DNA of 39,206 nucleotides from a virus. How positions within the stretch are numbered: the stretch's first letter is position 1; every line of letters begins with the position of its first letter. The DNA is taken from positions 1 to 39,206 of IMG/VR virus record IMGVR_UViG_3300027784_000010; one strand, 5' to 3'. The notes beneath the pieces were generated by a model. The model had not been told where the DNA came from. It did no database searches and was given only the letters and a program-made list of their open reading frames with translations. Both the position numbers and the translations under genes were made by a program. This document shows, one piece after another, positions 723 through 36,414 of the stretch.

Positions 723-1481
723 CTATATCAGTAACTTTTTTCCAAAAATATATCCAAGTTCTATATATTTATTTACATCTTCTTTCTTAATATAAATAAC
801 TTTTTTTCCATTATTCATCCATTTTCTTCCATATGCAGGGTTATTATGGCCTTTAGTTCTTTCGGAAATGTCTGGACGTGATTTACCTTTGTGGGACTCG
901 GATTTCTTTTTATTTGTATCTTCTTCAAGTTCTTTTGCTTTGTCGTATCCGTATTTTTCAACCCATACACTAAATACAGATTTTCCTGACATTGGATTGT
1001 TTTCATTTGAAAAATCTGCATGATTGAGTTTCATTTTCTCGCGAGTTTCCTTGGTATGTTTAGTTTTATATCTTGGATGATTTGTTTTGTTTTTGTATCG
1101 TTCTTTTGCTTTTAATCTGATAATTTCTTTAGTTTCCTCGGTATGCGGAATTGATATACCCATGTGAGATTCAGATAATTTCTTTCGAGTTTCCCCAGTA
1201 TGCGTTCCGTTTTGTCCACCACCAGTCATTAAATTATATCCAACACTTTTATTTGTTGAATTAAAATATGATATCCAAAATTGTTCACGTTCATTAAGTT
1301 CAATTTGTGATTCGTACTTTTCAATTATTTCTTTAATAAAATTACAAGATCCATGTTTCTTTATAGCATTACACAAATACACACCAGAACCTAAATACCA
1401 CTTAGAGTTTTCAACAGATTTTGTGGATTGTCCTATATAAATTTTCCCGTTCTTTTTATTTATGACTTTATAAATATACAT
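723..1481 (-). CDS. GIY-YIG homing endonuclease with NUMOD3 repeats
   Basis: A 252-residue free-standing homing endonuclease. The N-terminal 90 residues form a GIY-YIG nuclease domain: YIYKVINKKNGKIYIGQ, the downstream Arg/Glu region, and GYNLMTGGG. The rest is a string of NUMOD3-type DNA-binding repeats, including TGETRKKLSESHMG, HTEETKEI, HTKETREKMK, NNPMSGKS and a second SESHKGKSR with NNPAYGRKW. It lies between the two halves of a nucleotidyltransferase gene, with 43 nt and 47 nt of flanking non-coding DNA. That is too little for a group I intron core, so this looks like a direct gene-splitting insertion. A late-promoter-like TGAATATATAAA sits 8-19 nt upstream of the ATG. The nuclease domain appears intact. 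Homing specificity cannot be read from sequence. Confidence 0.93.
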   Translation of the reverse strand: MYIYKVINKKNGKIYIGQSTKSVENSKWYLGSGVYLCNAIKKHGSCNFIKEIIEKYESQIELNEREQFWISYFNSTNKSVGYNLMTGGGQNGTHTGETRKKLSESHMGISIPHTEETKEIIRLKAKERYKNKTNHPRYKTKHTKETREKMKLNHADFSNENNPMSGKSVFSVWVEKYGYDKAKELEEDTNKKKSESHKGKSRPDISERTKGHNNPAYGRKWMNNGKKVIYIKKEDVNKYIELGYIFGKKLLI

Positions 1482-4692: not shown

Positions 4693-5373
4693 TTATTTTT
4701 TTAATTTTTTCTTTTTTAATTCTCTTTGTAAATATAAATCATATTCTCTATAAATATCTGGTAAACTTTTTCCAATAATTTCTTTACTGTGTAAAAATGG
4801 AATTATTTCCCAATCATCATATTCAACAAGCACAGGATTTAACATTCTTGTTATTATATATTGCCTATATGCAAAACCGTAATTTAAATTTTTCGAATTA
4901 AAAACCCTTAATTGTAATAACCAATCTTTAAGAAAACTTATAATTCTTGATGATGTTAAAAATAATCTATTGTTCCAATATTCTTTTTCTGAGCGTTCGA
5001 TTTCTTTTTTAAATTGTTCATAATAATATTGAAGAACCGTAACCTTGATTTTTTCTGGTAGGAAATTTAAATTAATACCGACAAGTAAATTGTTTTTTGT
5101 GTTCGGGTGTTTATAAATACTATGAACAATCACAACAGGTCGTTTATCATAATAACTTAAAACATCTTTATATAAAGGATCATATTGATATGTATAAATT
5201 CTACCTGGGATAAAAAGGGCTTTTGAACTTTCAAGTAATTTACCTTCATTTAATTTCAAAAAATATTTATTTTCATCTTTATCAATATATTTTTCTTTAA
5301 AATATGAAAATGAATTTTTTATTCTATTATGATCTTTTTTTATTCTTTTATATGAATTTTTAGGACTTTCCAT
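4693..5373 (-). CDS. Conserved T4-like phage hypothetical protein
   Basis: 226 residues between the portal and head-completion genes; its start overlaps the end of the gp4-like gene by 14 nt, indicating co-translation. The N-terminus is highly basic. The centre, PGRIYTYQYDPLYKDVLSYYD, RPVVIVHSIY and GINLNFLPEKIKV, matches a pattern (a 'PG-I--Y-Y' strand, a 'P-V-V' strand, then 'G-NL-YLP') recurrent in T4-like phage structural-module proteins of unknown role. The C-terminus is a lysine-rich helix. No enzymatic motif is seen. Position suggests a virion or assembly role. Confidence 0.6.
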   Translation of the reverse strand: MESPKNSYKRIKKDHNRIKNSFSYFKEKYIDKDENKYFLKLNEGKLLESSKALFIPGRIYTYQYDPLYKDVLSYYDKRPVVIVHSIYKHPNTKNNLLVGINLNFLPEKIKVTVLQYYYEQFKKEIERSEKEYWNNRLFLTSSRIISFLKDWLLQLRVFNSKNLNYGFAYRQYIITRMLNPVLVEYDDWEIIPFLHSKEIIGKSLPDIYREYDLYLQRELKKKKLKK

Positions 5374-5877: not shown

Positions 5878-6252
5878 TTAAAAATTGTATAAATTTTCGT
5901 GTGATAAAGAAACTTTATTAATACTTTTAATTTTATACAATTTATTCCAACCTTTCTTTAATCCATTCCATATCATTCTTGTAAAATATGCAAATGCATT
6001 ATCTGATTTTTCTTCGTCATAACCTTTCCAATATCTTAAAATATCTTCAATTGCCGATGAAACACAATCTTCCCTGTCTTGGTGATATTTATATGTAAAG
6101 TTTTTTGCAATTTCATCACTCATTAAAATTAACATATCTAATGAACGAGGTGTTAGTTCACCATTTTTCTTTGATTTTATTATTTCATTTCGTAATTCAT
6201 CAGGATCTACATAATAATTTGAATTTTTTGATATTTTTCTTTTTTTCTTCAT
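5878..6252 (-). CDS. Late-transcription sigma factor (T4 gp55-like)
   Basis: 124 residues, shorter than T4 gp55 (185). gp55 is a minimal sigma-70-family factor that directs host RNA polymerase to late promoters, helped in T4 by the gp45 clamp. Visible conserved elements are VDPDELRNEIIKSK, LMSDEIAKNFTYKYHQDRED, a CVSSAIEDILRYWKGYDEE region equivalent to sigma region 2, and NAFAYFTRMIWNGLKKGW, which in this family contributes to core binding and -10 recognition. There is no region 4. It sits among the virion genes it would control. The clamp is encoded at 22429-23175, consistent with a T4-like late-transcription system. Confidence 0.85.
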   Translation of the reverse strand: MKKKRKISKNSNYYVDPDELRNEIIKSKKNGELTPRSLDMLILMSDEIAKNFTYKYHQDREDCVSSAIEDILRYWKGYDEEKSDNAFAYFTRMIWNGLKKGWNKLYKIKSINKVSLSHENLYNF

Positions 6253-14751: not shown

Positions 14752-14967
14752 TCAGGACCTCTCGGGATCTTCTTCTTTTATTTTCATATATGAATTTCTT
14801 CTTCTTTCATATGCATCTTTAACTTTTTTCTTTGCTTCTTCCTCACTTAAACCAAAGCGTTTCATATGCCATTTTGGATCTGCTACTAAATGACCGGTTG
14901 TGGTTTTTTTCTTTAAATTTGTTATTTTTTCTTTTGTTTCTTCCTCATTTAAATTATATCGTTTCAT
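14752..14967 (-). pseudogene. Eroded homing-nuclease remnant, DNA-binding repeats only
   Basis: 71 residues with two copies of a short helical unit: MKRYNLNEEETKEKITNLKK, and WHMKRFGLSEEEAKKKVKDA after ADPK. This '(W)xxKRxGLSEEEAxxKV' unit is common in Vsr-like (EDxHD) phage homing endonucleases. No PD-(D/E)xK, HNH or GIY nuclease core is present. It lies in the gap between the two gp41 fragments, where intact systems have a nuclease gene. A third unit sits in an overlapping frame at 14954-15097. Best read as the remains of an endonuclease; it could still be a small expressed DNA-binding protein. Confidence 0.5.
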
Positions 14968-16375: not shown

Positions 16376-17113
16376 TTATTGATCTTCATCTTCTTTTTTA
16401 TCTTCAAAAATTTCACTTGCAAATTCTTCAACATCATATATGTCGTCAACATCAGGTAATTGAAATGTTGGTTTGATAACTTTTTCATCAAGTTCTTGTA
16501 TTACTTCATCTGTAATAATTTCTGGTGTAAATAATCTACCAGGCTCAACTGTTTTACATAAATGTCTTACAACAAATTTTCTGGCTGTAGATTTTGGCCA
16601 AAAACATTTCTGTACACCTTCATATTCAAATAACCAATTATTCTTTTTTGCTTCTTCAAGTTCCTCTGGTTTTAATTTTGAGATTGCCTTTTCCTCAAGA
16701 ATATGACCTCTCTCAATTCCACAAGTATTCCAGTTTATAAATTCTTCTAAACCTACATAAGGATTCATTCCTTTGTAAAATGATATATGAAATCTTATTT
16801 GAATTGGTCGTGCAAATCTATTTTTCTTTGGTTTTGATCTTACAACAATACCAGATTGTTTCATATCAACATCACGCTCACCTTTCGGTTTTTCTTCCTT
16901 TAATTGAGATTTATACAAAAATGTTATAACTGATGCATTATATAAAGGACCACCACCACCTGACATAACATCATCAGGTATGAAGCCCCCAATAGAATTA
17001 TGAGAAAGAATCCCATTTCTCAATATATAATGATGTGCATCTTTAACCTCAATATCATGAACTTCAATATTGTCATTTTTGTATGTTTTTCTTATAATTT
17101 TTAATTTCTTCAT
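16376..17113 (-). CDS. C-intein fused to the C-terminal half of UvsX recombinase
   Basis: 245 residues. Residues 1-39 are a canonical C-intein: IEVHDIEVKDAHHYI...NGILSHN with Asn39, then +1 Ser40. Residues 40-245 are the UvsX C-extein: SIGGFIPDDVMSGGGGPLYN covers the L2 DNA-binding loop, followed by SVITFLYKSQ and a C-terminal domain ending in an acidic tail (FEDKKEDED), like the T4 UvsX tail that binds partners. With the 212-residue N-extein the product is about 418 residues against 391 in T4. It starts inside the remnant nuclease frame (41-nt overlap). Splicing is needed to join the ATPase core to L2. Confidence 0.93.
   Translation of the reverse strand: MKKLKIIRKTYKNDNIEVHDIEVKDAHHYILRNGILSHNSIGGFIPDDVMSGGGGPLYNASVITFLYKSQLKEEKPKGERDVDMKQSGIVVRSKPKKNRFARPIQIRFHISFYKGMNPYVGLEEFINWNTCGIERGHILEEKAISKLKPEELEEAKKNNWLFEYEGVQKCFWPKSTARKFVVRHLCKTVEPGRLFTPEIITDEVIQELDEKVIKPTFQLPDVDDIYDVEEFASEIFEDKKEDEDQ
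16997..17113 (-). other. C-intein of the uvsX split intein
   Basis: 39 residues with blocks F and G (VHDIEV, HHYI, GILSHN) and the penultimate His-Asn pair, immediately before Ser+1 of the L2 segment. This is the standard split position, unlike the gp41 intein. Confidence 0.92.
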
Positions 17114-17270
17114 ATGTTATTTTTTTAAATGTTTTTCCGTTTGGTGAATAATACAAAATAAAATTATAACCTGCATTTATTACTGATTTTGCTTTATCCA
17201 ATATTACACCAATTTCTTTTTCTAAAAAATATTTTGATTTTACTTCAATTATAATACAAAAATCTATAAA
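17073..17270 (-). pseudogene. C-terminal remnant of an EDxHD/PD-(D/E)xK homing endonuclease
   Basis: An open frame of 65 codons without a start, beginning right after TAA at 17271. It reads FIDFCIIIEVKSKYFLEKEI, then a helix and INAGYNFILYYSPNGKTFKK. The D...IEVKS core and the following 'K-A ... G-NF' spacing match the C-terminus of the intact EDxHD endonuclease at 21323-22357 (PDIYL...IIEVKS...KKQACLDNNLNFEL). Its N-terminal part is missing. The TnpB-family gene ends 16 nt upstream, so TnpB appears to have replaced or interrupted this endonuclease. The remnant overlaps the C-intein start in another frame. Confidence 0.7.
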
Positions 17271-17285
17271 TTAAATAATAACTAA

Positions 17286-18530
17286 TTATAAAATTTGTAA
17301 ATTTTTGTTCATTTGATTGATATGACACCAATCAAATCTTTCTGAAACAACAAGAGTTTCAAATGGCGGATTATAATCGCCCATAAATTGTTTATAAATG
17401 TTTATTGCACCATTTATATCTCGATTTAAATCATTTCCACAATCACATACATATTGCCTATGACTTAAATTTAGATCACTTTTAACAGATCCACATTTAG
17501 AGCATGTTTTTGAAGTCCATGCTTCATTAACTTTTATAACTTGATTACCCATTAACTTACATTTATATTCTAATAGGTGTATAAAAGTTTGTAAATTCCA
17601 ATTATTTTGCATTTGTCTATTTAAAGAACGAAAATTAGATTTTATATTTTTCTTAAGGTTTGTTAATTCACCTATAAGTATTGTTTTGTTTTGATTAGAT
17701 AAATCTTTAGTTACCTTTTGAAGCGTTAAGTTTGTTTGTGTTTTCTTTTTAGAACAAACACTCTTTAATTTTTTGTTTATCTGTTTTAATTTTCTGCTCT
17801 TTTTCTTTTTTGTATCTCTTAAGGATTTTAATTCATCAATTCTTTTATCTAAAAATTTTTGATTCTTATTTAAATATTTTGAACTATAAACTATACCCCT
17901 GTTTTTTTCAACATCATAAAGTGCAAGTAAATTTTTCTTACCCAAATCAATACTTAAAATTTTATTTGGGTTAACGGGTTTTAATCCACTTTCTTTCTTT
18001 TCATATGATATAGATGCAAAATAGTCATTATCGTTCTTAAATATCTTAAGTTGTTTAATATCAGATTCTTTTGTTTTATTCCTTAAGCAAATTAGATCTT
18101 TAATAGGTTCAATATAATCAAGATGAATTTCAATTTTTCTATAATTTGAATATGATATTTTTAAAATATTTTCTTTGATAATAAAATCCTGTGTAAAAGA
18201 CAATGTAAAGAAATAATCCTTCCCCCTAAATTTGGGTGGTTTTGAGTTTAAATCTTTATTTTGTTTAATCAGTTTAAAAAATGAAGAATAATTATTATGT
18301 AAAGAACGTAATATTTCTTTCTTTATATCAAATGTTAGGTGCTCTGATTTATAATTTTTTAATTCACTTTGTTGTTTATAGTAAGAAATGAATGTTTTAT
18401 CTTTTTCATACTGCTCATTCAAATTACTTAAAAAATGATTATATAACATTCTACCATCATTAGACATATTGTCAATGATAGATTGTTGTTCCTCAGTAAG
18501 ATTAAGTTTTATTTTAAAAGTTAATAACAT
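17286..18530 (-). CDS. tnpB: TnpB-family RNA-guided nuclease between the uvsX split-intein halves
   Basis: 414 residues, the usual TnpB length. The N-terminal half is the WED/REC-type region. The RuvC core is complete: SIDLGKKN with Asp195, LIGELTNL with Glu288, and NRDINGAINI with Asp371. A zinc finger CSKCG...CDCG (Cys343, 346, 362, 364) lies between the last two. No tnpA is present. Left of it, 46 nt separate it from the uvsX N-part stop; right of it, 15 nt lead to the endonuclease remnant. The gene has phage-like AT-rich codons and a GAATATATATAA promoter motif, suggesting long residence. A guide (omega) RNA would be expected to overlap the 3' end of the gene, but I cannot define it by eye. 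Confidence 0.92.
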   Translation of the reverse strand: MLLTFKIKLNLTEEQQSIIDNMSNDGRMLYNHFLSNLNEQYEKDKTFISYYKQQSELKNYKSEHLTFDIKKEILRSLHNNYSSFFKLIKQNKDLNSKPPKFRGKDYFFTLSFTQDFIIKENILKISYSNYRKIEIHLDYIEPIKDLICLRNKTKESDIKQLKIFKNDNDYFASISYEKKESGLKPVNPNKILSIDLGKKNLLALYDVEKNRGIVYSSKYLNKNQKFLDKRIDELKSLRDTKKKKSRKLKQINKKLKSVCSKKKTQTNLTLQKVTKDLSNQNKTILIGELTNLKKNIKSNFRSLNRQMQNNWNLQTFIHLLEYKCKLMGNQVIKVNEAWTSKTCSKCGSVKSDLNLSHRQYVCDCGNDLNRDINGAINIYKQFMGDYNPPFETLVVSERFDWCHINQMNKNLQIL

Positions 18531-18545
18531 TAAATTTCTTTTTTA

Positions 18546-18558
18546 TTATATATATTCA
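18546..18558 (-). promoter_or_regulatory. Late-type promoter motif upstream of tnpB
   Basis: The minus strand reads TGAATATATATAA, 15 nt before the tnpB ATG and inside the 46-nt gap after the uvsX N-part. It matches the motif at 1489 and 10325 over TGAATATATA. Confidence 0.42.
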
Positions 18559-18576
18559 TACATACGCAGGATATTT

Positions 18577-19488
18577 TTAAATTAATAAAATTTCTGCACC
18601 CTCGGGAATCTCGTCAGCTCTCACCCAAACAATACTACCATTTTGTTCAATTGCCAGTTTATGATCATGTGTACATTTTAATATATACCCATCATCAAAT
18701 TCAAACTCTATATAGTTATCAATATCATATTTAAACTTATTTGTTACTTCTTTATCACCATCCAAAGTCAATACACTATCTGATATATCAATATCTTTTA
18801 TTTTTTTATAATTTCCATCTGACATTAATATTTCGTTATCACCATGAATACATGCATATGTGTGTGCTGTCATTATAAAAGGGATTTTTGCTTCGGCCAA
18901 ATCCATTGTAATTATTCTGAATAATGATCTAAGTTCTTGTTGTTTTGTCATATCCTTTTTCTCGGATTTTGCAAGTGCATCTCCACGTTCTTTAGTTGTT
19001 GCTAAATTACCTAATGAATCTAAAACAATCATAATTTTTGGTATCTTTTTTCCACTTTCTTTAGCATCTTTAATTTCTTTTAATAAATTAGCAATAAAAT
19101 ATTTAAATTCAAGTGGTGTATTTATAGGTTGATATCTTACTTTATCAGGATCCATACCAAATTTTTTAAATTGAATTTCATCAACTGCTGCTTCTGAATC
19201 ACAATAAATTATATAATAACCTTTCTTTTGTGCTTGTCTACAACAATTTAAAGCCAAGAATGTTTTACCAGTTCCTGTAGAACCCGCAAATGCAACAGTT
19301 CTACTGTTAGGAATACCACCATAAAGAGAACCGCTTATTTGTGCATTGAATAATAAATTGCCCGTATCTATAAAATCATCAACCTTTGAAAATGCATTTT
19401 TAGAACTTATAGAACCTCGTGAATCTAATTTTGATAAAGAATTATCTAAATCTATAAATGTTAATTCTTTTGAATCTTTTTTTGCCAT
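18577..19488 (-). CDS. N-terminal half of UvsX recombinase fused to an N-intein
   Basis: 303 residues. Residues 1-212 form the RecA/UvsX ATPase core: Walker A GSTGTGKT (69-76), YYIIYCDSEAAVDE, Walker B IMIVLDSLGNL, and IPFIMTAHTYA just before L2. Residues 213-303 (CIHGDNEILMSDG to the stop) are a 91-residue N-intein with block A and block B (KCTHDHKLAI). Joined to the C-part at 16376-17113, the sequence reads HTYA/SIGGF. UvsX catalyses strand exchange for recombination-dependent replication. The gene begins 31 nt after the polymerase C-half. Confidence 0.95.
   Translation of the reverse strand: MAKKDSKELTFIDLDNSLSKLDSRGSISSKNAFSKVDDFIDTGNLLFNAQISGSLYGGIPNSRTVAFAGSTGTGKTFLALNCCRQAQKKGYYIIYCDSEAAVDEIQFKKFGMDPDKVRYQPINTPLEFKYFIANLLKEIKDAKESGKKIPKIMIVLDSLGNLATTKERGDALAKSEKKDMTKQQELRSLFRIITMDLAEAKIPFIMTAHTYACIHGDNEILMSDGNYKKIKDIDISDSVLTLDGDKEVTNKFKYDIDNYIEFEFDDGYILKCTHDHKLAIEQNGSIVWVRADEIPEGAEILLI
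18580..18852 (-). other. N-intein of the uvsX split intein
   Basis: 91 residues starting with Cys, with block A (CIHGDNEILMSDG) and block B (CTHDHKL), ending at the stop codon. Its length is typical of canonical phage split inteins such as gp41-1. Confidence 0.92.
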
Positions 19489-19519: not shown

Positions 19520-21211
19520 CTAAAATAATGATTTACTTATAATTAAATTACTTGAAAGTGTTTGAAATCCTAGTGCATCTATAAATCTATTTAAAGGTTC
19601 AATAAATGCTTTTTCGAATTGCTTTTCATAATCAACAGAAGGTGCACATTCATATGGAAAGTTACCAGGTAAATAAGAGAAGACATTACATTCACCCATA
19701 TCTGATAATGCATGGTAGTATTTAATTTTATCACCAGTTTTAATTAAAGAATATTTTTTTCGTAATTTTTTATCATTATTGATTATAAAATTATGATTAC
19801 CTGCACCTCTTACATGCATTGGACAATGTGGTAATATTTCAAGTTTTTCTTTATCGTTTGCAATTCCTTTTTCATAATCACCAATACTTGAACCAAAAGA
19901 AATATCTGATATTTCTGAAGTTAAAAATTCTTGTTTTAATTTTTTCAATTCATTAACAAAATCTCTCAAATTTAAATCTTTTTTATACTTAAATATTATT
20001 TTTAATATATCAACTAAATATTTTCTTGAGAATAATGGTGTTGATGATTGAACAATTTCTACACCACTTGCTTTAATTTTTTCTTGTGGTTTAAATTCAA
20101 TATCAGGTAATTGCCATGCCATATCCTGAACATATTTCTTTTTTGCTAGTAATATTGCACTTCTTGCAATACTCTCAAGCTCAAAGTCTTGTATGTTCTT
20201 AGTATTCCATTTTTTTGCATATTGTTCAAATGCATTATTTAAAAATTCTTTTAATCTAAATTTATTTATATCATATATTAATTTATTTGAATTACCATCA
20301 TAATTACAACCATTAACAACTTCTTCAAATGAACAATACACGGAATTATGAACAAGTATATCATTACCAATAAATGTATGTGTTTCATCATCCATTTCTA
20401 TATCATATACATATTCATTATCAAAATTACCAACGGGTTCACATGTTTCTATTTCATCGAATTTATATTCTATTTGTAATTTTTCAATGTCTATTATTTT
20501 TGTGATAATAAGTACTTTATCACTTTGTTTTGTTTTATATGGTTTAATTTTAATTTTTTTACCATTTCTAAAAACAATTAATGAATGATCATTTGTTACA
20601 AAAATTTCCTTTCCTGTTTTTGTTTTTAATTGCCATTTTTCTTTACTTACTTTATGACGTATTAATTTTTTTACCTTTGAGAAAACAATTTTATTATTTT
20701 TTGAATAGTTTAAGACATTTATATCTTTTGGTATTATTACTTCATGCCCAAACGGTGAAATTTCAACATTGCTTATATTTTTTACTTCATTTTCATATAA
20801 TTTTTCTATTGAAATTGAACCTTTGTCTGTTCTTAATATTGAATCTTTATCTATTGTGTCAGTATCACCATAAACCGAGACATCAAGTTCAACTTTCTCA
20901 ACATGTGTAAGCCCAAGTTTTTCATGTAACTTTTTATCCTTGTGCCAAATTTCTTTAAAATACTTATTTAAAACTAAAGCTGAAAATTTGATAATATCTT
21001 GTCCTTGTAACGTAATAGCTTCTGCTAAATCAGGATTATAACAAACAAAGTACACAGATGCACAAGCCCCATAAATAGAGTTCAGAAATATTTTTATACC
21101 CATCTGCTCATTATTATAAGCATTTGCTAGATGTTGTAATCTTTTTATTTCTTTATCTATTTCTTCTATAGTGGGTTCTTCGGTAAGTTTCGCGTATTTA
21201 AATTCCTTCAT
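19520..21211 (-). CDS. C-terminal half of family B DNA polymerase (gp43-like) with a mini-intein
   Basis: From the ATG at 21211 (an in-frame GTG at 21250 would add 13 residues). Numbered from the GTG: motif B is KIFLNSIYGA (about 53-62). Motif C, YGDTD/S, is split by a 171-residue intein at 132-302. SVYCSF follows, then palm and thumb with IKASGVEIVQSSTP and HVRGAGNHNF, typical of T4-like polymerases. Exonuclease and motif A are absent; they are encoded 14 kb away at 35008-36414. Together, without the intein, the two parts give about 860 residues against 898 in T4. The split falls in the fingers, with no obvious loss of sequence. A plus-strand homing endonuclease gene lies immediately upstream. 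Confidence 0.93.
   Translation of the reverse strand: MKEFKYAKLTEEPTIEEIDKEIKRLQHLANAYNNEQMGIKIFLNSIYGACASVYFVCYNPDLAEAITLQGQDIIKFSALVLNKYFKEIWHKDKKLHEKLGLTHVEKVELDVSVYGDTDTIDKDSILRTDKGSISIEKLYENEVKNISNVEISPFGHEVIIPKDINVLNYSKNNKIVFSKVKKLIRHKVSKEKWQLKTKTGKEIFVTNDHSLIVFRNGKKIKIKPYKTKQSDKVLIITKIIDIEKLQIEYKFDEIETCEPVGNFDNEYVYDIEMDDETHTFIGNDILVHNSVYCSFEEVVNGCNYDGNSNKLIYDINKFRLKEFLNNAFEQYAKKWNTKNIQDFELESIARSAILLAKKKYVQDMAWQLPDIEFKPQEKIKASGVEIVQSSTPLFSRKYLVDILKIIFKYKKDLNLRDFVNELKKLKQEFLTSEISDISFGSSIGDYEKGIANDKEKLEILPHCPMHVRGAGNHNFIINNDKKLRKKYSLIKTGDKIKYYHALSDMGECNVFSYLPGNFPYECAPSVDYEKQFEKAFIEPLNRFIDALGFQTLSSNLIISKSLF
20345..20857 (-). other. Mini-intein in polymerase motif C, with Thr as first residue
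   Basis: 171 residues between YGDTD and SVY. Block A-like IDKDSILRTDKG, block B FVTNDHSL, and blocks F/G VYDIEMDDETHTF...DILVHN before Ser+1. No LAGLIDADG domain. The residue after YGDTD is Thr (ACA), where a Cys or Ser nucleophile is normal. Confidence 0.85.
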
Positions 21212-21322
21212 ATTATATTTTCTACAGTTGAATTTATTATTATTATTCACTAGTATAAATTAGTTTCATATTTGACAAAAATCTTGATTGTGATTTTGAT
21301 ATATATTAAAAATACTATTTAT

Positions 21323-22357
21323 ATGAAATTAAAAAATTACATAAATCGTCACATTAATAAATTTGGTTCTTTAAAAGGTTTCAAATCAAAAAAGAATAAA
21401 AAATATCTTGATGAATTAAATTTTCTATATCCTAATAAATCAATATCAGAACAAATTTATTTATTTTTAAACAGTATGTTAGAATCACCATTATGTTGTG
21501 ATTGTAATATTAATCATGTTAGACTTATAACTTTTAATCAAGGTTATCATAAACGTTGTCAATCATGTGGTTTAAAATATTCATCTAAAATTAACAAAAG
21601 GAACAAAACGAAACAATTTTTAGAAATTAAACTTATATGCAAAAATTGTAATAAAGAATTTATTCGTAAAACAAAAAATGAAAAAGAATTATCAAAACCT
21701 AAAGTTAAATTTTGCTCAAAATCTTGTGCCACAAAATATAATCAATTAAATATGCCACCCAAGATTCGAAAATTAAAAATTGAAAAAACAAAGAAAACTT
21801 GTTTGGAAAAATATGGTGATGAATATGTAATAAATTCTGAATATTCAAGACAAAAAACAAAAGACAAGACTGGTTTTAAATATGCATTTGAAAATAAAAT
21901 AGTTCAAGATAATATTCAAAATTATTTTAAAAACACGTATAACATAAATAGTCCCATTCTTGTACCAGGTGCAATAGATAAAATGAAAACCACAAAACTT
22001 AAAAAATATGGAGATTTTCTTCCACAATACAGATATAAAGAATTTAAGTTTCCTTCAGGTAGAATTGCTAAAGTACAAGGATATGAAGATCGTGTTATAA
22101 ATATGTTATTAAAGAAATATAAAGAAAATGATATTGTTGTTGGTCGCAAAGAGATTGAAAAACATACAGGTAAGATATTTTATAATGGTAAAGATAATAG
22201 AGAACATATTTACTATCCAGATATTTATCTCATTTCAAAGAACAGAATAATAGAAGTCAAATCTACATATACATATAACATACACAAAGAAAATGTTTTT
22301 CTTAAAAAACAGGCATGTTTAGATAACAATTTAAATTTTGAGTTAATTATTTTGTAA
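21323..22357 (+). CDS. EDxHD (Vsr-like) homing endonuclease
   Basis: The only plus-strand gene. The start is taken at MKLKNYINRHINKFG; an upstream ATG at 21272 would add 17 unlikely residues. Two Cys pairs (CCDCN...CQSCG; CKNCNKEF...FCSKSCA) form zinc-finger-like modules. TKKTCLEKYGDEYVIN and KMKTTKLKKYGDF follow as DNA-binding repeats. The nuclease domain is C-terminal: QGYEDRVINMLL, then YYPDIYLISKNRIIEVKS, the E-D...PD...EVK signature of the family that includes I-Bth0305I. It is divergent from the polymerase C-half and convergent with the clamp, and shares a bidirectional terminator at 22378-22404. It probably homes into the polymerase break. Confidence 0.88.
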   Translation: MKLKNYINRHINKFGSLKGFKSKKNKKYLDELNFLYPNKSISEQIYLFLNSMLESPLCCDCNINHVRLITFNQGYHKRCQSCGLKYSSKINKRNKTKQFLEIKLICKNCNKEFIRKTKNEKELSKPKVKFCSKSCATKYNQLNMPPKIRKLKIEKTKKTCLEKYGDEYVINSEYSRQKTKDKTGFKYAFENKIVQDNIQNYFKNTYNINSPILVPGAIDKMKTTKLKKYGDFLPQYRYKEFKFPSGRIAKVQGYEDRVINMLLKKYKENDIVVGRKEIEKHTGKIFYNGKDNREHIYYPDIYLISKNRIIEVKSTYTYNIHKENVFLKKQACLDNNLNFELIIL

Positions 22358-24264: not shown

Positions 24265-25569
24265 TTAGTTTTCTATTTCTTCTTCCTCATCTTCAAAATC
24301 TGGTATATCAATATTTTCACCTTTAAAAAATTCTATCCCATCAATATCATCAATATCATCAAGCAAATCCTTTGATGCTTTATTTTTGATACCTTTACCA
24401 GATGTAGTATCTTTTGTTGATTCAAATATCTTTTTAAAATTGTTTAAAGTTTTATTTTTTTCTTTTTTCTCTTTCTCAAGTTCCTTTATTTTTTCTGCTA
24501 CTCGTTTCAATTCATCTTCATTAAGAAATCTTAATAATAAATTATTTAATTTTGTTGCAATTTTTTTTTCATATTTCTCAAGAAAAGAATCAATGTCTTT
24601 TTCCGTTCTTTTCTTTAATAACATAAATTCTAAATATTTCTTTTTTGCTTTATTATAATCCAATTCAAAACAAATTTCATTATAAAAATATTCAGCTCTT
24701 TTAAAATCAATCTGAGCAACTCTATATTTAAAATCTAAAATATAATCTTCTATCTTATCATATTGAATTACAACACCGTCCTTAATAAAAACAGGTGTTT
24801 CGGTTACCAACATTTTTGTGGCTTTGTATAAAATATTTTTAAAGTGCTCCCATTCTTTATCTTGTCCTTTAAAATTTATTTTTATATCAATTTCAAATGA
24901 TGAATTGTTTTTAATTTTAAAATTACCTTCATGATCTTCAATTATTTTATTTAATTTTTTAAGAAATTTTTCATATTTCATCATAGGTGGTAAATCAGTA
25001 ATATGTACAAATTTTAATTTGTCGTCATATTCAAATTTACCTTCGATTAGCCAAGTCTTGTCGAAATTTTGATATTTTTTTATTTTTCCTTTGAAATTTT
25101 TAAAATAAGGTTTAATATTTTTTATTTTTCCATTTAAAAATTTTTCTACATCTTTAATATTTCTGGGTAATATAAATGATTTATACCCAACACCAATTCC
25201 GGTGATAAGTGTTGTTAATCCAATAGGTAAATTTATATATAAAGGTTGCCAATTACCTTCTTCATTTTTTGAATTTAAAAAAGAATTTTCTTTAATGATT
25301 TTTGAATAATCAGGATTTATTTTAATAGATGTATATCTTGGTGCAGCAGCAGTTTCTTTAACAACCGAGCCAAAAAAACCATCGCCTTCAAGTAAAGAAT
25401 CAGCACAATTGACAGGTTTTGCTAATTTATTTATTGCACCCTTTAAAGAAGAGTTATGAGACAATATTTTACTCTTACCTACAAAAAAACATGATGTTTT
25501 ATCAACAGTTATATCATATAATTTTACAGGTTCTTTTAATTTTTTATTTTTTATTGATTTTATTTTCAT
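24265..25569 (-). CDS. C-intein fused to the C-terminal part of topoisomerase II cleavage subunit (gp52/GyrA-like)
   Basis: The start is taken at the ATG MKIKSIKNKK (25569); the longer frame to 25605 begins with TTG. Residues 1-39 are a C-intein, LYDITVDKTSCFFVG...KILSHN, before +1 Ser. The C-extein begins SSLKGAINKLAKPVNCADSL, includes the catalytic-Tyr motif AAAPRYTSIKI, and continues through tower and coiled-coil regions to an acidic tail (DFEDEEEEIEN). With the 75-residue N-extein the product is about 470 residues against 442 for T4 gp52. Its 5' end overlaps the HNH gene by 26 nt. Confidence 0.9.
   Translation of the reverse strand: MKIKSIKNKKLKEPVKLYDITVDKTSCFFVGKSKILSHNSSLKGAINKLAKPVNCADSLLEGDGFFGSVVKETAAAPRYTSIKINPDYSKIIKENSFLNSKNEEGNWQPLYINLPIGLTTLITGIGVGYKSFILPRNIKDVEKFLNGKIKNIKPYFKNFKGKIKKYQNFDKTWLIEGKFEYDDKLKFVHITDLPPMMKYEKFLKKLNKIIEDHEGNFKIKNNSSFEIDIKINFKGQDKEWEHFKNILYKATKMLVTETPVFIKDGVVIQYDKIEDYILDFKYRVAQIDFKRAEYFYNEICFELDYNKAKKKYLEFMLLKKRTEKDIDSFLEKYEKKIATKLNNLLLRFLNEDELKRVAEKIKELEKEKKEKNKTLNNFKKIFESTKDTTSGKGIKNKASKDLLDDIDDIDGIEFFKGENIDIPDFEDEEEEIEN
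25453..25569 (-). other. C-intein of the topoisomerase split intein
   Basis: 39 residues from ATG, ending KILSHN before Ser-Ser-Leu-Lys. The matching N-part at 26408-26704 ends the frame after HHGD, so splicing restores HHGDSSLKG, the conserved DNA-gate motif. Confidence 0.88.
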
Positions 25570-26365
25570 TATATTGTTTATTATATAGTTTAAATAATTC
25601 TTCAATATCTATTGAACATTTTGAATTTTTTGCAGAATTTTCAGATGTTGTTAAAAGTTCTATATTATAAATACTACCTATAATTTTAGGATCTATATTA
25701 TTTAAGAAACCATTTATTGTAGAATATTTATGATCAATTGATAATTTTTCTTTATATGGTACAGTTTTATTATATTTTTTAATTTCATCAAATGTCATTC
25801 CTAAATATTTTTCTCCATATAATCTTATACTATTCATTGTAAAACCCCAAACATTAAATCTATATGCATTTATTTTTGAATTATTGTTAAAATTTTTATC
25901 ACACCATCGATCATAACCGTATTTTATTATAAAATTAAAATGATGTCTTGTTCTCCAATAATAAGATTGACTTATATTTGTATATTCTATATTATCATCT
26001 AATAAACGAGATTTGAATTTTTTTTTAATAGTTTCAATTATTTTTGCTTTCACATTATCACGTTGAAAAACATTTATTATTCCTTCTTCTTTTAACAATC
26101 GATCTTCCCAATCTTTACGTGAACGTGATTCTTTTGAAAAATTATGTTCTGTACCACATGATTTTAACCAAGATTGTTTTTTCAATTGGGTTGCACATTC
26201 TTTCGAACATGTAGATCCTTGATTATAGTGTCTTTTTCCACATCTTAGACAATCCTTTTCTTGTTTTCTACATACTGAACATAATGTAACATAACGTTCT
26301 TTATTTTCATTTTTCTTATATGGTCTAAAATTTCTATTGCATATTTTACATTTGTACTTTCCCAT
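25544..26365 (-). CDS. HNH homing endonuclease in the topoisomerase break
   Basis: The start is taken at MGKYKCKICNRNF; an upstream TTG would add 8 residues. The N-terminus has three zinc-binding clusters (CKICN; CSVCRKQEKDCLRCGKRH; CSKECA). The middle is basic and helical. The C-terminal nuclease domain is SIDHKYSTINGFLNNIDPKI, then a NIELLTTSENSAKNSK block: the DH...N...N/K pattern of phage HNH homing enzymes. It sits exactly between the N- and C-intein genes of the topoisomerase and overlaps the C-part by 26 nt. TGATATATAAAATA, a late-promoter-like motif, precedes it. It probably spreads the fractured allele. Confidence 0.82.
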   Translation of the reverse strand: MGKYKCKICNRNFRPYKKNENKERYVTLCSVCRKQEKDCLRCGKRHYNQGSTCSKECATQLKKQSWLKSCGTEHNFSKESRSRKDWEDRLLKEEGIINVFQRDNVKAKIIETIKKKFKSRLLDDNIEYTNISQSYYWRTRHHFNFIIKYGYDRWCDKNFNNNSKINAYRFNVWGFTMNSIRLYGEKYLGMTFDEIKKYNKTVPYKEKLSIDHKYSTINGFLNNIDPKIIGSIYNIELLTTSENSAKNSKCSIDIEELFKLYNKQYNENKINKK

Positions 26366-26404
26366 GATAATAACTATTTTATATATCAAAAATAAAATAA
26401 TTAT

Positions 26405-35007: not shown

Positions 35008-36414
35008 TTACGAAACGGGACTTTTTTCTAATTTATTTTTCATTTTTTTCAATTCATCAATCTCATGTTCAACATCTTCTTTTTTATTCTTTGCATCCTT
35101 ACGTTTTCCATAATATTTACTTAACATTACACGAAAAACTGAATCTTCTTTATTATCAAAAATACCACCAGATGAACTATATGTATATGCATCTTCATAT
35201 TCATTTCGTTTTTTCTTTTCTTTTTTAATAAAACTTTCTGGTGACATATTCCACTGTCTCATAATAGTAGGATATAGGGATGCAAAGTCAAATGAGGCAA
35301 CCCATTCGTATATTCCTTTTTTTGGGGTAAAAACATATGCACCTTCATAATGTCCTCTGGATGGTTTTGCTTTACCCGATACAGGAAATACTTTTCCTCT
35401 TTTATAAAATTCTTCCGTCATCACAGTTTCAGTTAATGCAATTGGTGAAAATACTTTAGACAATTCACATTTTGTAACCTTACCCAAATTTAAAAATGTT
35501 TCCATTGTCTCAATATTATCATGTATTAATTTAACAAGTAATGAGTCTATTGCGTTATAATAAACATATTTCATAAAATCAGATTCATATAAATCACTTA
35601 ATGTACCGTTAAATTTTATTTTCTCTAAACCAGTTGCCTGTGTTGCGACATAATCTAATGTATTATTTTCTTTGAATATTATTCTATCCCATTTTTTATA
35701 AATTTCAAGATAATCAACAACTACTCGATGAAGTGGTAATTCATCTCTACCTACCAATTTATTTGATGGTGATGCAACTGTAGGATCTATTGCAAGTTTT
35801 CTACATCTATTAATTAAATATTGCCAATCAAACTGAACAAAATTCCAACCCGTCATTAATGGCATTTTTTGAATCCATTTATTAAAAAATGTATATAACA
35901 TATCATATTCCGATTTGTAATATACATAACTAAATCTTATTGGTTCATAATTTTTTGTGGCAAGATATTCATTGATCATTCCTTCAATAGTTTTTATTTG
36001 ATCTGGTGATAAAGGTTTTGTTCCAACAACCGCAAGTAAATCTTTATGTGCAAATGATATTGCCGTAATCTCATGTCTTGCTACTGTAGGTTTTGGCCAC
36101 TCACCATCATTTTTAACCTCAATATCTATAAAAAATTTTTTGGGATCATTATATGCATAAATTCTATCTTTTATATTTTGATGTTGATTAATTAAAATTT
36201 CATTAACTCTAAATTTAGATAAATATTTAGTATTTGTTTTTACAACGGGTTTATTATCCCATGATTTAAAATGAGAATCTGTCTTTGATGTTTTTGAATA
36301 AGCCCATTCAAACAAATCTTTATGTTGAACAGGAATATTACTGAATGCTATATCACCCTTTTCATCAAAATGTGAAATTTTAATTTGTTGGTATTGTTGT
36401 TCTATATTTATCAT
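35008..36414 (-). CDS. N-terminal half of family B DNA polymerase (gp43-like)
   Basis: 468 residues. The 3'-5' exonuclease motifs are complete: Exo I FFIDIEV (Asp97, Glu99), Exo II NFVQFDWQYL (Asp196) and Exo III YVYYNAID (Asp290). Polymerase motif A is FDFASLYPTIMRQ (Asp376). The frame continues through FRVMLSKYYGKRKDAKNKK, the first part of the fingers, and stops after LKKMKNKLEKSPVS. Motifs B and C are missing; they are encoded at 19520-21211. No intein half is visible at this end, so the two halves presumably assemble non-covalently. A terminator follows, confirming this as a true gene end. Confidence 0.94.
   Translation of the reverse strand: MINIEQQYQQIKISHFDEKGDIAFSNIPVQHKDLFEWAYSKTSKTDSHFKSWDNKPVVKTNTKYLSKFRVNEILINQHQNIKDRIYAYNDPKKFFIDIEVKNDGEWPKPTVARHEITAISFAHKDLLAVVGTKPLSPDQIKTIEGMINEYLATKNYEPIRFSYVYYKSEYDMLYTFFNKWIQKMPLMTGWNFVQFDWQYLINRCRKLAIDPTVASPSNKLVGRDELPLHRVVVDYLEIYKKWDRIIFKENNTLDYVATQATGLEKIKFNGTLSDLYESDFMKYVYYNAIDSLLVKLIHDNIETMETFLNLGKVTKCELSKVFSPIALTETVMTEEFYKRGKVFPVSGKAKPSRGHYEGAYVFTPKKGIYEWVASFDFASLYPTIMRQWNMSPESFIKKEKKKRNEYEDAYTYSSSGGIFDNKEDSVFRVMLSKYYGKRKDAKNKKEDVEHEIDELKKMKNKLEKSPVS

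What the first reader, a model, noticed from the sequence alone, without database searches (positions are those of the whole stretch)
16376..19488. A TnpB-family gene sits between the two halves of a split-intein uvsX gene
The uvsX N-part ends in a Cys-initiated N-intein, the C-part begins with a C-intein ending SHN/S, and the two exteins join at HTYA/SIGGF. The gap holds a full-length TnpB with an intact RuvC triad (Asp195, Glu288, Asp371). Fractured genes with split inteins are known to carry free-standing homing endonucleases of the EDxHD family; TnpB is an RNA-guided nuclease. If it cuts intact uvsX alleles under an RNA guide, it would be an RNA-guided homing system propagating a split-intein allele. 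No tnpA is present, and the gene has phage-like base composition and a phage-type promoter, suggesting domestication rather than a recent insertion.
Basis: partly seen in the sequence, partly recalled or inferred. Interest (0 to 1): 0.92.

Follow-up and report, generated by a model that had tools for sequence, protein, structure and literature searches.

The report
RNA-guided nuclease inside split-intein recombinase gene
In a T4-like phage, a TnpB RNA-guided DNA cutter with a conserved guide-RNA scaffold sits in the gap of a recombinase gene split by an intein, where a homing endonuclease gene used to be, and its predicted guide is copied from that endonuclease's own conserved motif, which suggests an RNA-guided cutter has taken over a homing endonuclease's niche.

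Summary
In detail: uvsX-N + N-intein (18577-19488), full-length TnpB (17286-18530, RuvC D195/E288/D371), C-intein + uvsX-C (16376-17113). (1) 17255-17076 is the surviving C-terminus of a DUF7487 homing endonuclease; relatives occupy the same uvsX gap in related phages (L224, L007). (2) The tnpB 3' end encodes an omega-RNA-like scaffold whose hairpins and pseudoknot are kept by compensatory changes across relatives. Its end, fixed by comparing four copies, puts the predicted guide at 17249-17230 (ATTGAAGTAAAATCAAAATA), the endonuclease's I-E-V-K-S-K codons. It does not match uvsX. TnpB is under purifying selection (dN/dS 0.115), no tnpA was found, and relatives lie at unrelated sites in other phages. 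Best reading: an IS200/IS605-type TnpB unit that displaced the resident homing endonuclease and would act as an RNA-guided drive against alleles of this gap still carrying endonuclease sequence, not against intein-less uvsX. The anatomy is well supported; transcription, cleavage, TAM and homing are inferred. One instance only; no exact target allele was found.

The parts
18577..19488 (-). uvsX N-extein (212 aa) + N-intein (91 aa, 18580-18852, starts Cys)
18549..18557 (-). late-promoter-like GAATATATA upstream of tnpB; DNA shared with the L026 copy starts at about 18553
17286..18530 (-). tnpB, 414 aa, RuvC D195/E288/D371 and CCCC zinc ribbon
17250..17382 (-). predicted omega-RNA scaffold core: stem 1 17382-17364, hairpin 1 17360-17344, hairpin 2 17337-17311, hairpin 3 17308-17256, pseudoknot 3' strand 17255-17250
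17230..17249 (-). predicted guide ATTGAAGTAAAATCAAAATA, codons I-E-V-K-S-K of the endonuclease remnant
17076..17255 (-). C-terminal remnant of a DUF7487 homing endonuclease; overlaps the C-part start by 38 nt
16376..17113 (-). C-intein (39 aa, ends SHN) + uvsX C-extein (206 aa)

Best explanation
A tnpA-less IS200/IS605-type TnpB/omega-RNA unit has taken the place of most of the homing endonuclease gene in a split-intein uvsX gap. Shown in sequence: a full-length nuclease with its catalytic residues, a conserved RNA scaffold, a unit end inside the endonuclease's IIEVKS codons, and the same unit at other sites with other flanks. Inferred: tnpB is transcribed from a phage late promoter, and TnpB uses the RNA from the 3' end of its message. 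The last 16-20 nt of that RNA (ATTGAAGTAAAATCAAAATA) would direct cutting of co-infecting genomes whose uvsX gap still carries this endonuclease sequence without TnpB. Phage recombination, which uses the spliced UvsX itself, would then copy the TnpB-bearing gap, and the linked split intein, into the cut genome. It would not convert intein-less uvsX alleles, because the guide does not match uvsX.
For: TnpB full length and catalytic, dN/dS 0.115 against the 80% relative. Scaffold: 98.5% of pair cells paired, 7 of 27 pairs with changes on both sides, 0 of 500 shuffles reach the covariation score, pairing below 50% when partners are slid; folds of natural sequence agree. Unit end fixed by four copies that share the scaffold and then differ. 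Endonuclease remnant: coding bias, profile of residues outside the search motif E 5.7e-5, 0 of 1000 shuffles. DUF7487 endonucleases in the same uvsX gap: L224, L007. Guide copies the flank and TnpB drives IS-plus over IS-minus DNA in known systems (PMC8612924; PMC11870625).
Against: One instance. No allele with an exact target was found (metagenomes not searchable here). The TAM is unresolved; if it were TATA, as some flanks hint, the unit's own TTATA/guide junction would be a self-target. The left flank of the unit is not endonuclease sequence, so a deletion or an insertion into an already truncated endonuclease must be assumed. Every anatomical feature is shared with a passenger insertion.
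Confidence: 0.5

Rival explanations
1. Ordinary passenger: a TnpB element landed in a decaying endonuclease remnant because the split-intein gap is neutral DNA. Its nuclease serves only its own retention, as in any IS605-type element, with no lasting relation to the split intein.
For: The same unit lies at unrelated sites in L002/L026 and, as an RNA-only remnant, in L004/L005. Endonucleases decay in such gaps: L054 and the window's own dnaB gap.
Against: Protein and RNA are both under selection, but that is equally true of an active passenger element.
Confidence: 0.32
2. Competitor exclusion: TnpB cuts genomes of co-infecting phages that carry DUF7487 endonucleases at many loci, through the conserved IEVKS codons, harming rivals rather than copying itself.
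For: The guide lies on the most conserved codons of a widespread endonuclease family.
Against: Metagenomic family members have 2-5 mismatches in 20 nt at the equivalent site, some near the 5' (seed) end; the phage's own DUF7487 gene has 4.
Confidence: 0.1
3. One reading: the guide matches intact uvsX, so TnpB spreads the split intein into intein-less alleles.
For: Position in the gap only.
Against: Predicted guide is from the endonuclease; no uvsX match with 4 or fewer mismatches.
Confidence: 0.03
4. TldR-like regulator: RNA-guided binding without cutting.
For: Phage-encoded RNA-guided TldR transcription factors are described (PMC13418256, listed).
Against: D195, E288 and D371 are all present; L026 keeps all three, L003 has Asp in place of Glu288.
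Confidence: 0.03

Closest known systems
ISDra2 TnpB-reRNA of IS200/IS605 (PMC8612924, PMC10097598)
   Same: Homologous nuclease over its full length; RNA from the tnpB 3' end with a pseudoknot near the guide; guide read from the flank.
   Different: No tnpA found; sits in a split-intein gap of a phage gene in place of a homing endonuclease; TAM and activity unknown.
Fractured genes with split inteins and gap endonucleases (Dassa et al. 2009, known to me by memory; cited in PMC10448857)
   Same: Essential phage gene split by a split intein with a nuclease gene in the gap; the endonuclease 3' end overlaps the C-part.
   Different: The gap nuclease is RNA-guided; the endonuclease is a C-terminal remnant.
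TnpB gene drive in plasmids (PMC11870625)
   Same: Guide records the insertion site and TnpB removes insertion-free copies.
   Different: Here a phage allele at a split-intein site; drive not shown.
IStrons (PMC4227781)
   Same: IS-type element whose insertion is made harmless by a self-splicing element.
   Different: Splicing here is at the protein level, in trans, and TnpB lies outside the spliced proteins.

Membership tests
TnpB (IS200/IS605 OrfB) RNA-guided nuclease | OrfB_IS605 / TNB domains and RuvC D-E-D triad | tested here: met
TnpB (IS200/IS605 OrfB) RNA-guided nuclease | omega-RNA at the tnpB 3' end with conserved structure | tested here: met
   in silico only:
TnpB (IS200/IS605 OrfB) RNA-guided nuclease | guide equals the right flank and changes with the site | tested here: met
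   four copies share the scaffold and differ right after it
TnpB (IS200/IS605 OrfB) RNA-guided nuclease | TAM at the left flank | tested here: inconclusive
   shared left edge ATATATAATAAAA; empty sites NTATA before the target, but self-target problem
TnpB (IS200/IS605 OrfB) RNA-guided nuclease | RNA-guided cleavage | not testable with these tools
   needs biochemistry
Autonomous IS200/IS605 element | Y1 transposase tnpA | tested here: not met
   no PF01797 match in the window or the relatives' records; the window record is a 39-kb fragment
Fractured gene with split intein | separate N-intein and C-intein genes joining conserved exteins | tested here: met
Fractured gene with split intein | trans-splicing activity | not testable with these tools
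   splicing residues present
DUF7487 homing endonuclease | C-terminal IIEVKS region | tested here: met
DUF7487 homing endonuclease | full-length gene in the uvsX gap | tested here: not met
   only about 60 codons remain
EDxHD homing endonuclease | EDxHD catalytic motif | not tested
   the remnant is filed with Pfam DUF7487 through its relatives
TldR (nuclease-dead TnpB regulator) | lost RuvC catalytic residues | tested here: not met

The most novel reading that the evidence does not exclude
An RNA-guided nuclease has replaced the protein homing endonuclease of a split-intein gene and drives the gap, with the linked split intein, through phage populations, using a guide taken from the endonuclease it displaced.
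Probability: 0.35. Interest if true: 0.85.

Novelty: new variant of a known kind. Interest (0 to 1): 0.62.

Why it matters
Inteins and introns are known to be driven by protein homing endonucleases. A TnpB in that seat would link RNA-guided nucleases directly to intein biology and show that the drive nuclease of a self-splicing gene can be swapped for a programmable one. It makes testable whether RNA-guided homing occurs during phage co-infection. Literature searches in an open-licence library found no report of it; that library lacks most subscription papers.

Tried and rejected
Rfam showed no known RNA family at the locus. tblastn of the remnant in phage records and a peptide-pattern scan found nothing; a DNA pattern for its core motif then found the family. 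TAM = TATA was considered from the shared left edge and the L004 empty sites, and held back because the unit's own TTATA/guide junction would then be a target. A guide match to uvsX was sought and not found. No close TnpB relative in the bacterial and archaeal genome collection and no exact guide match there. Relatives of the gene next to the L026 copy gave no empty site. AlphaFold on three sequences gave a poor model (mean pLDDT 41) and was not used.

Full report
Observation. The region reads, on the minus strand, uvsX-N with an N-intein (18577-19488), tnpB (17286-18530) and a C-intein with uvsX-C (16376-17113). The N-part matches UvsX and Hint/intein models. Splicing HTYA to SIGGF gives a 418-aa protein that aligns end to end with intact UvsX proteins of related phages (57%), whose sequence across the junction is HTYASIGSF. 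TnpB aligns over residues 5-381 with ISDra2 TnpB of known structure and keeps D195, E288 and D371. The surrounding genes (late sigma factor, portal, topoisomerase II, ligase, family B polymerase, ribonucleotide reductase) are those of a T4-like phage.

What the gap held before. Directly after tnpB a frame reads IIIEVKSKYFLEKEIGVILDKAKSVINAGYNFILYYSPNGKTFKKITYEEIKNYKKNIQK and overlaps the start of the C-part by 38 nt. Its codon usage is that of the phage's genes (+20.9 bits; the other two minus-strand frames are below -50). A DNA pattern for its core motif recovered about two dozen phage genes. The seven tested all match Pfam DUF7487, and six of the seven match PHROG endonuclease families, mostly homing endonucleases. 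To avoid circularity a profile was built only from residues downstream of the searched motif. It picks the remnant out of all window frames (E 5.7e-5), second only to the window's own complete DUF7487 gene at 21272-22357, and no shuffle out of 1000 scores as high. One recovered locus, L224, is a uvsX split at the equivalent site, with a DUF7487 endonuclease (IIEVKSTY) between the intein halves, its frame running on into the C-intein. L007 has a gene with DUF7487 similarity in its gap, L054 a truncated one and L040 an empty 38-bp gap. Most relatives have intact uvsX. The window's gap therefore once held such an endonuclease, and TnpB stands in place of all but its last 60 or so codons.

The TnpB unit. 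The closest copy (80% protein identity; L002 and L026 are identical, from a 429-462 kb phage) shares DNA with the window from 18553 to 17304 but lies between other genes; that phage's uvsX is intact. dN/dS between the two copies is 0.115, so the protein is under purifying selection. L004/L005 keep only the last 50 or so codons and the 3' end, 88-89% identical in DNA to the window, upstream of a primase gene; related phages lack this insert. A 58% relative, L003, is cut by its contig end at the 5' side. No Y1 transposase is present in these records.

The RNA. The tnpB 3' end and the bases after it fold into a short stem 1 (GGCG/CGCC) and two hairpins, with a third hairpin in the window and L004. 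Across five sequences 98.5% of pair cells pair, 7 of 27 pairs carry changes on both sides, none of 500 shuffles reaches the covariation score, and sliding the partners by 1-3 columns drops pairing below 50%. Hairpin 2 has a different sequence in L003 and still pairs; in L026 its compensatory change alters two amino acids (D to Y, Q to K) while keeping the pair. The stem-1 loop can pair with the last bases of the unit (ATTATA; in L026, loop TTATAGT with ACTATAA), as in the ISDra2 pseudoknot (PMC10097598). The helix arms were put in register by hand before counting, which favours the named structure, and L004 and L005 are near-duplicates; the fold predictions on natural sequence are independent of that.

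Guide. Four copies share the scaffold up to this pseudoknot strand and then differ, so the guide is taken to start at 17249: ATTGAAGTAAAATCAAAATA. It encodes I-E-V-K-S-K; the IEVKS part is invariant in the endonuclease alignment, though the set was gathered with that motif. No site in the two uvsX parts matches within 4 mismatches. Among 23 endonuclease loci the equivalent site has 2-5 mismatches in 20 nt, counted in a frame offset by a few nt from the final guide start. No exact target was found in bacterial genomes, and no metagenome scan was available.

Mechanism. In IS200/IS605 the guide records the flank, so TnpB cuts the insertion-free allele. Here that allele would be a uvsX gap carrying this endonuclease sequence without TnpB. 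Repair from the TnpB-bearing genome would copy TnpB and linked DNA. This is the logic by which a homing endonuclease keeps a split-intein gap, but RNA-guided and aimed at the endonuclease's own motif. The step from anatomy to drive is inference. The main alternative, a passenger insertion in a neutral gap, shares every anatomical feature and cannot be excluded from one instance. The TAM is not settled: the shared left edge (ATATATAATAAAA) and the empty sites of L004 relatives (NTATA before the target) suggest TATA, but the unit's own junction is TTATA followed by the guide, which would then be a self-target. The left flank of the unit is not endonuclease sequence, so either the 5' part of the endonuclease was deleted with or after insertion, or the unit entered an already truncated gene.

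Verdict. The finding is real and more specific than first described: a TnpB unit on an endonuclease's conserved codons inside a split-intein gap. It is a new arrangement of known parts, with one instance, a plausible drive mechanism and clear tests.

Noticed in passing
window 14752-14967 (-): A 71-aa ORF in the dnaB split-intein gap looks like a truncated form of the 362-aa endonuclease that fills the same gap in L040 (7726-8814).
   Followed up: partly
window 21272-22357 (+): A complete DUF7487 endonuclease gene on the opposite strand next to the polymerase gene; 4 mismatches to a 20-nt guide at its IEVKS codons.
   Followed up: partly
L004 and L005, about 6004-6200: A TnpB-less stretch keeping an intact omega-RNA-like scaffold with a different guide, upstream of a primase gene; possibly a guide RNA that could be used by a TnpB in trans, or a decayed element.
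   Followed up: partly
window 19520-21250 and 35008-36414 (-): Family B DNA polymerase is in two genes about 14 kb apart; the 3' one carries a contiguous intein.
   Followed up: no
window 25544-26389 (-) and 723-1481 (-): Further endonuclease-like genes: one between topoisomerase II genes, one with GIY-YIG homing endonuclease matches.
   Followed up: no
L007 2525-6696: uvsX in this phage appears split by two inteins, each gap with an endonuclease-like gene; the endonuclease at 4938 is preceded by an inverted repeat (TGTGAAGTTTCAT/ATGAAACTTCACA) over its start codon with a late-promoter-like sequence in the loop, also seen in L054.
   Followed up: no
L031 and L032 (LR756500.1 about 221741-222883 and 348527-349666): Two nearly identical copies of another TnpB subfamily in the same huge phage, beside structural-type genes and not near inteins.
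   Followed up: no
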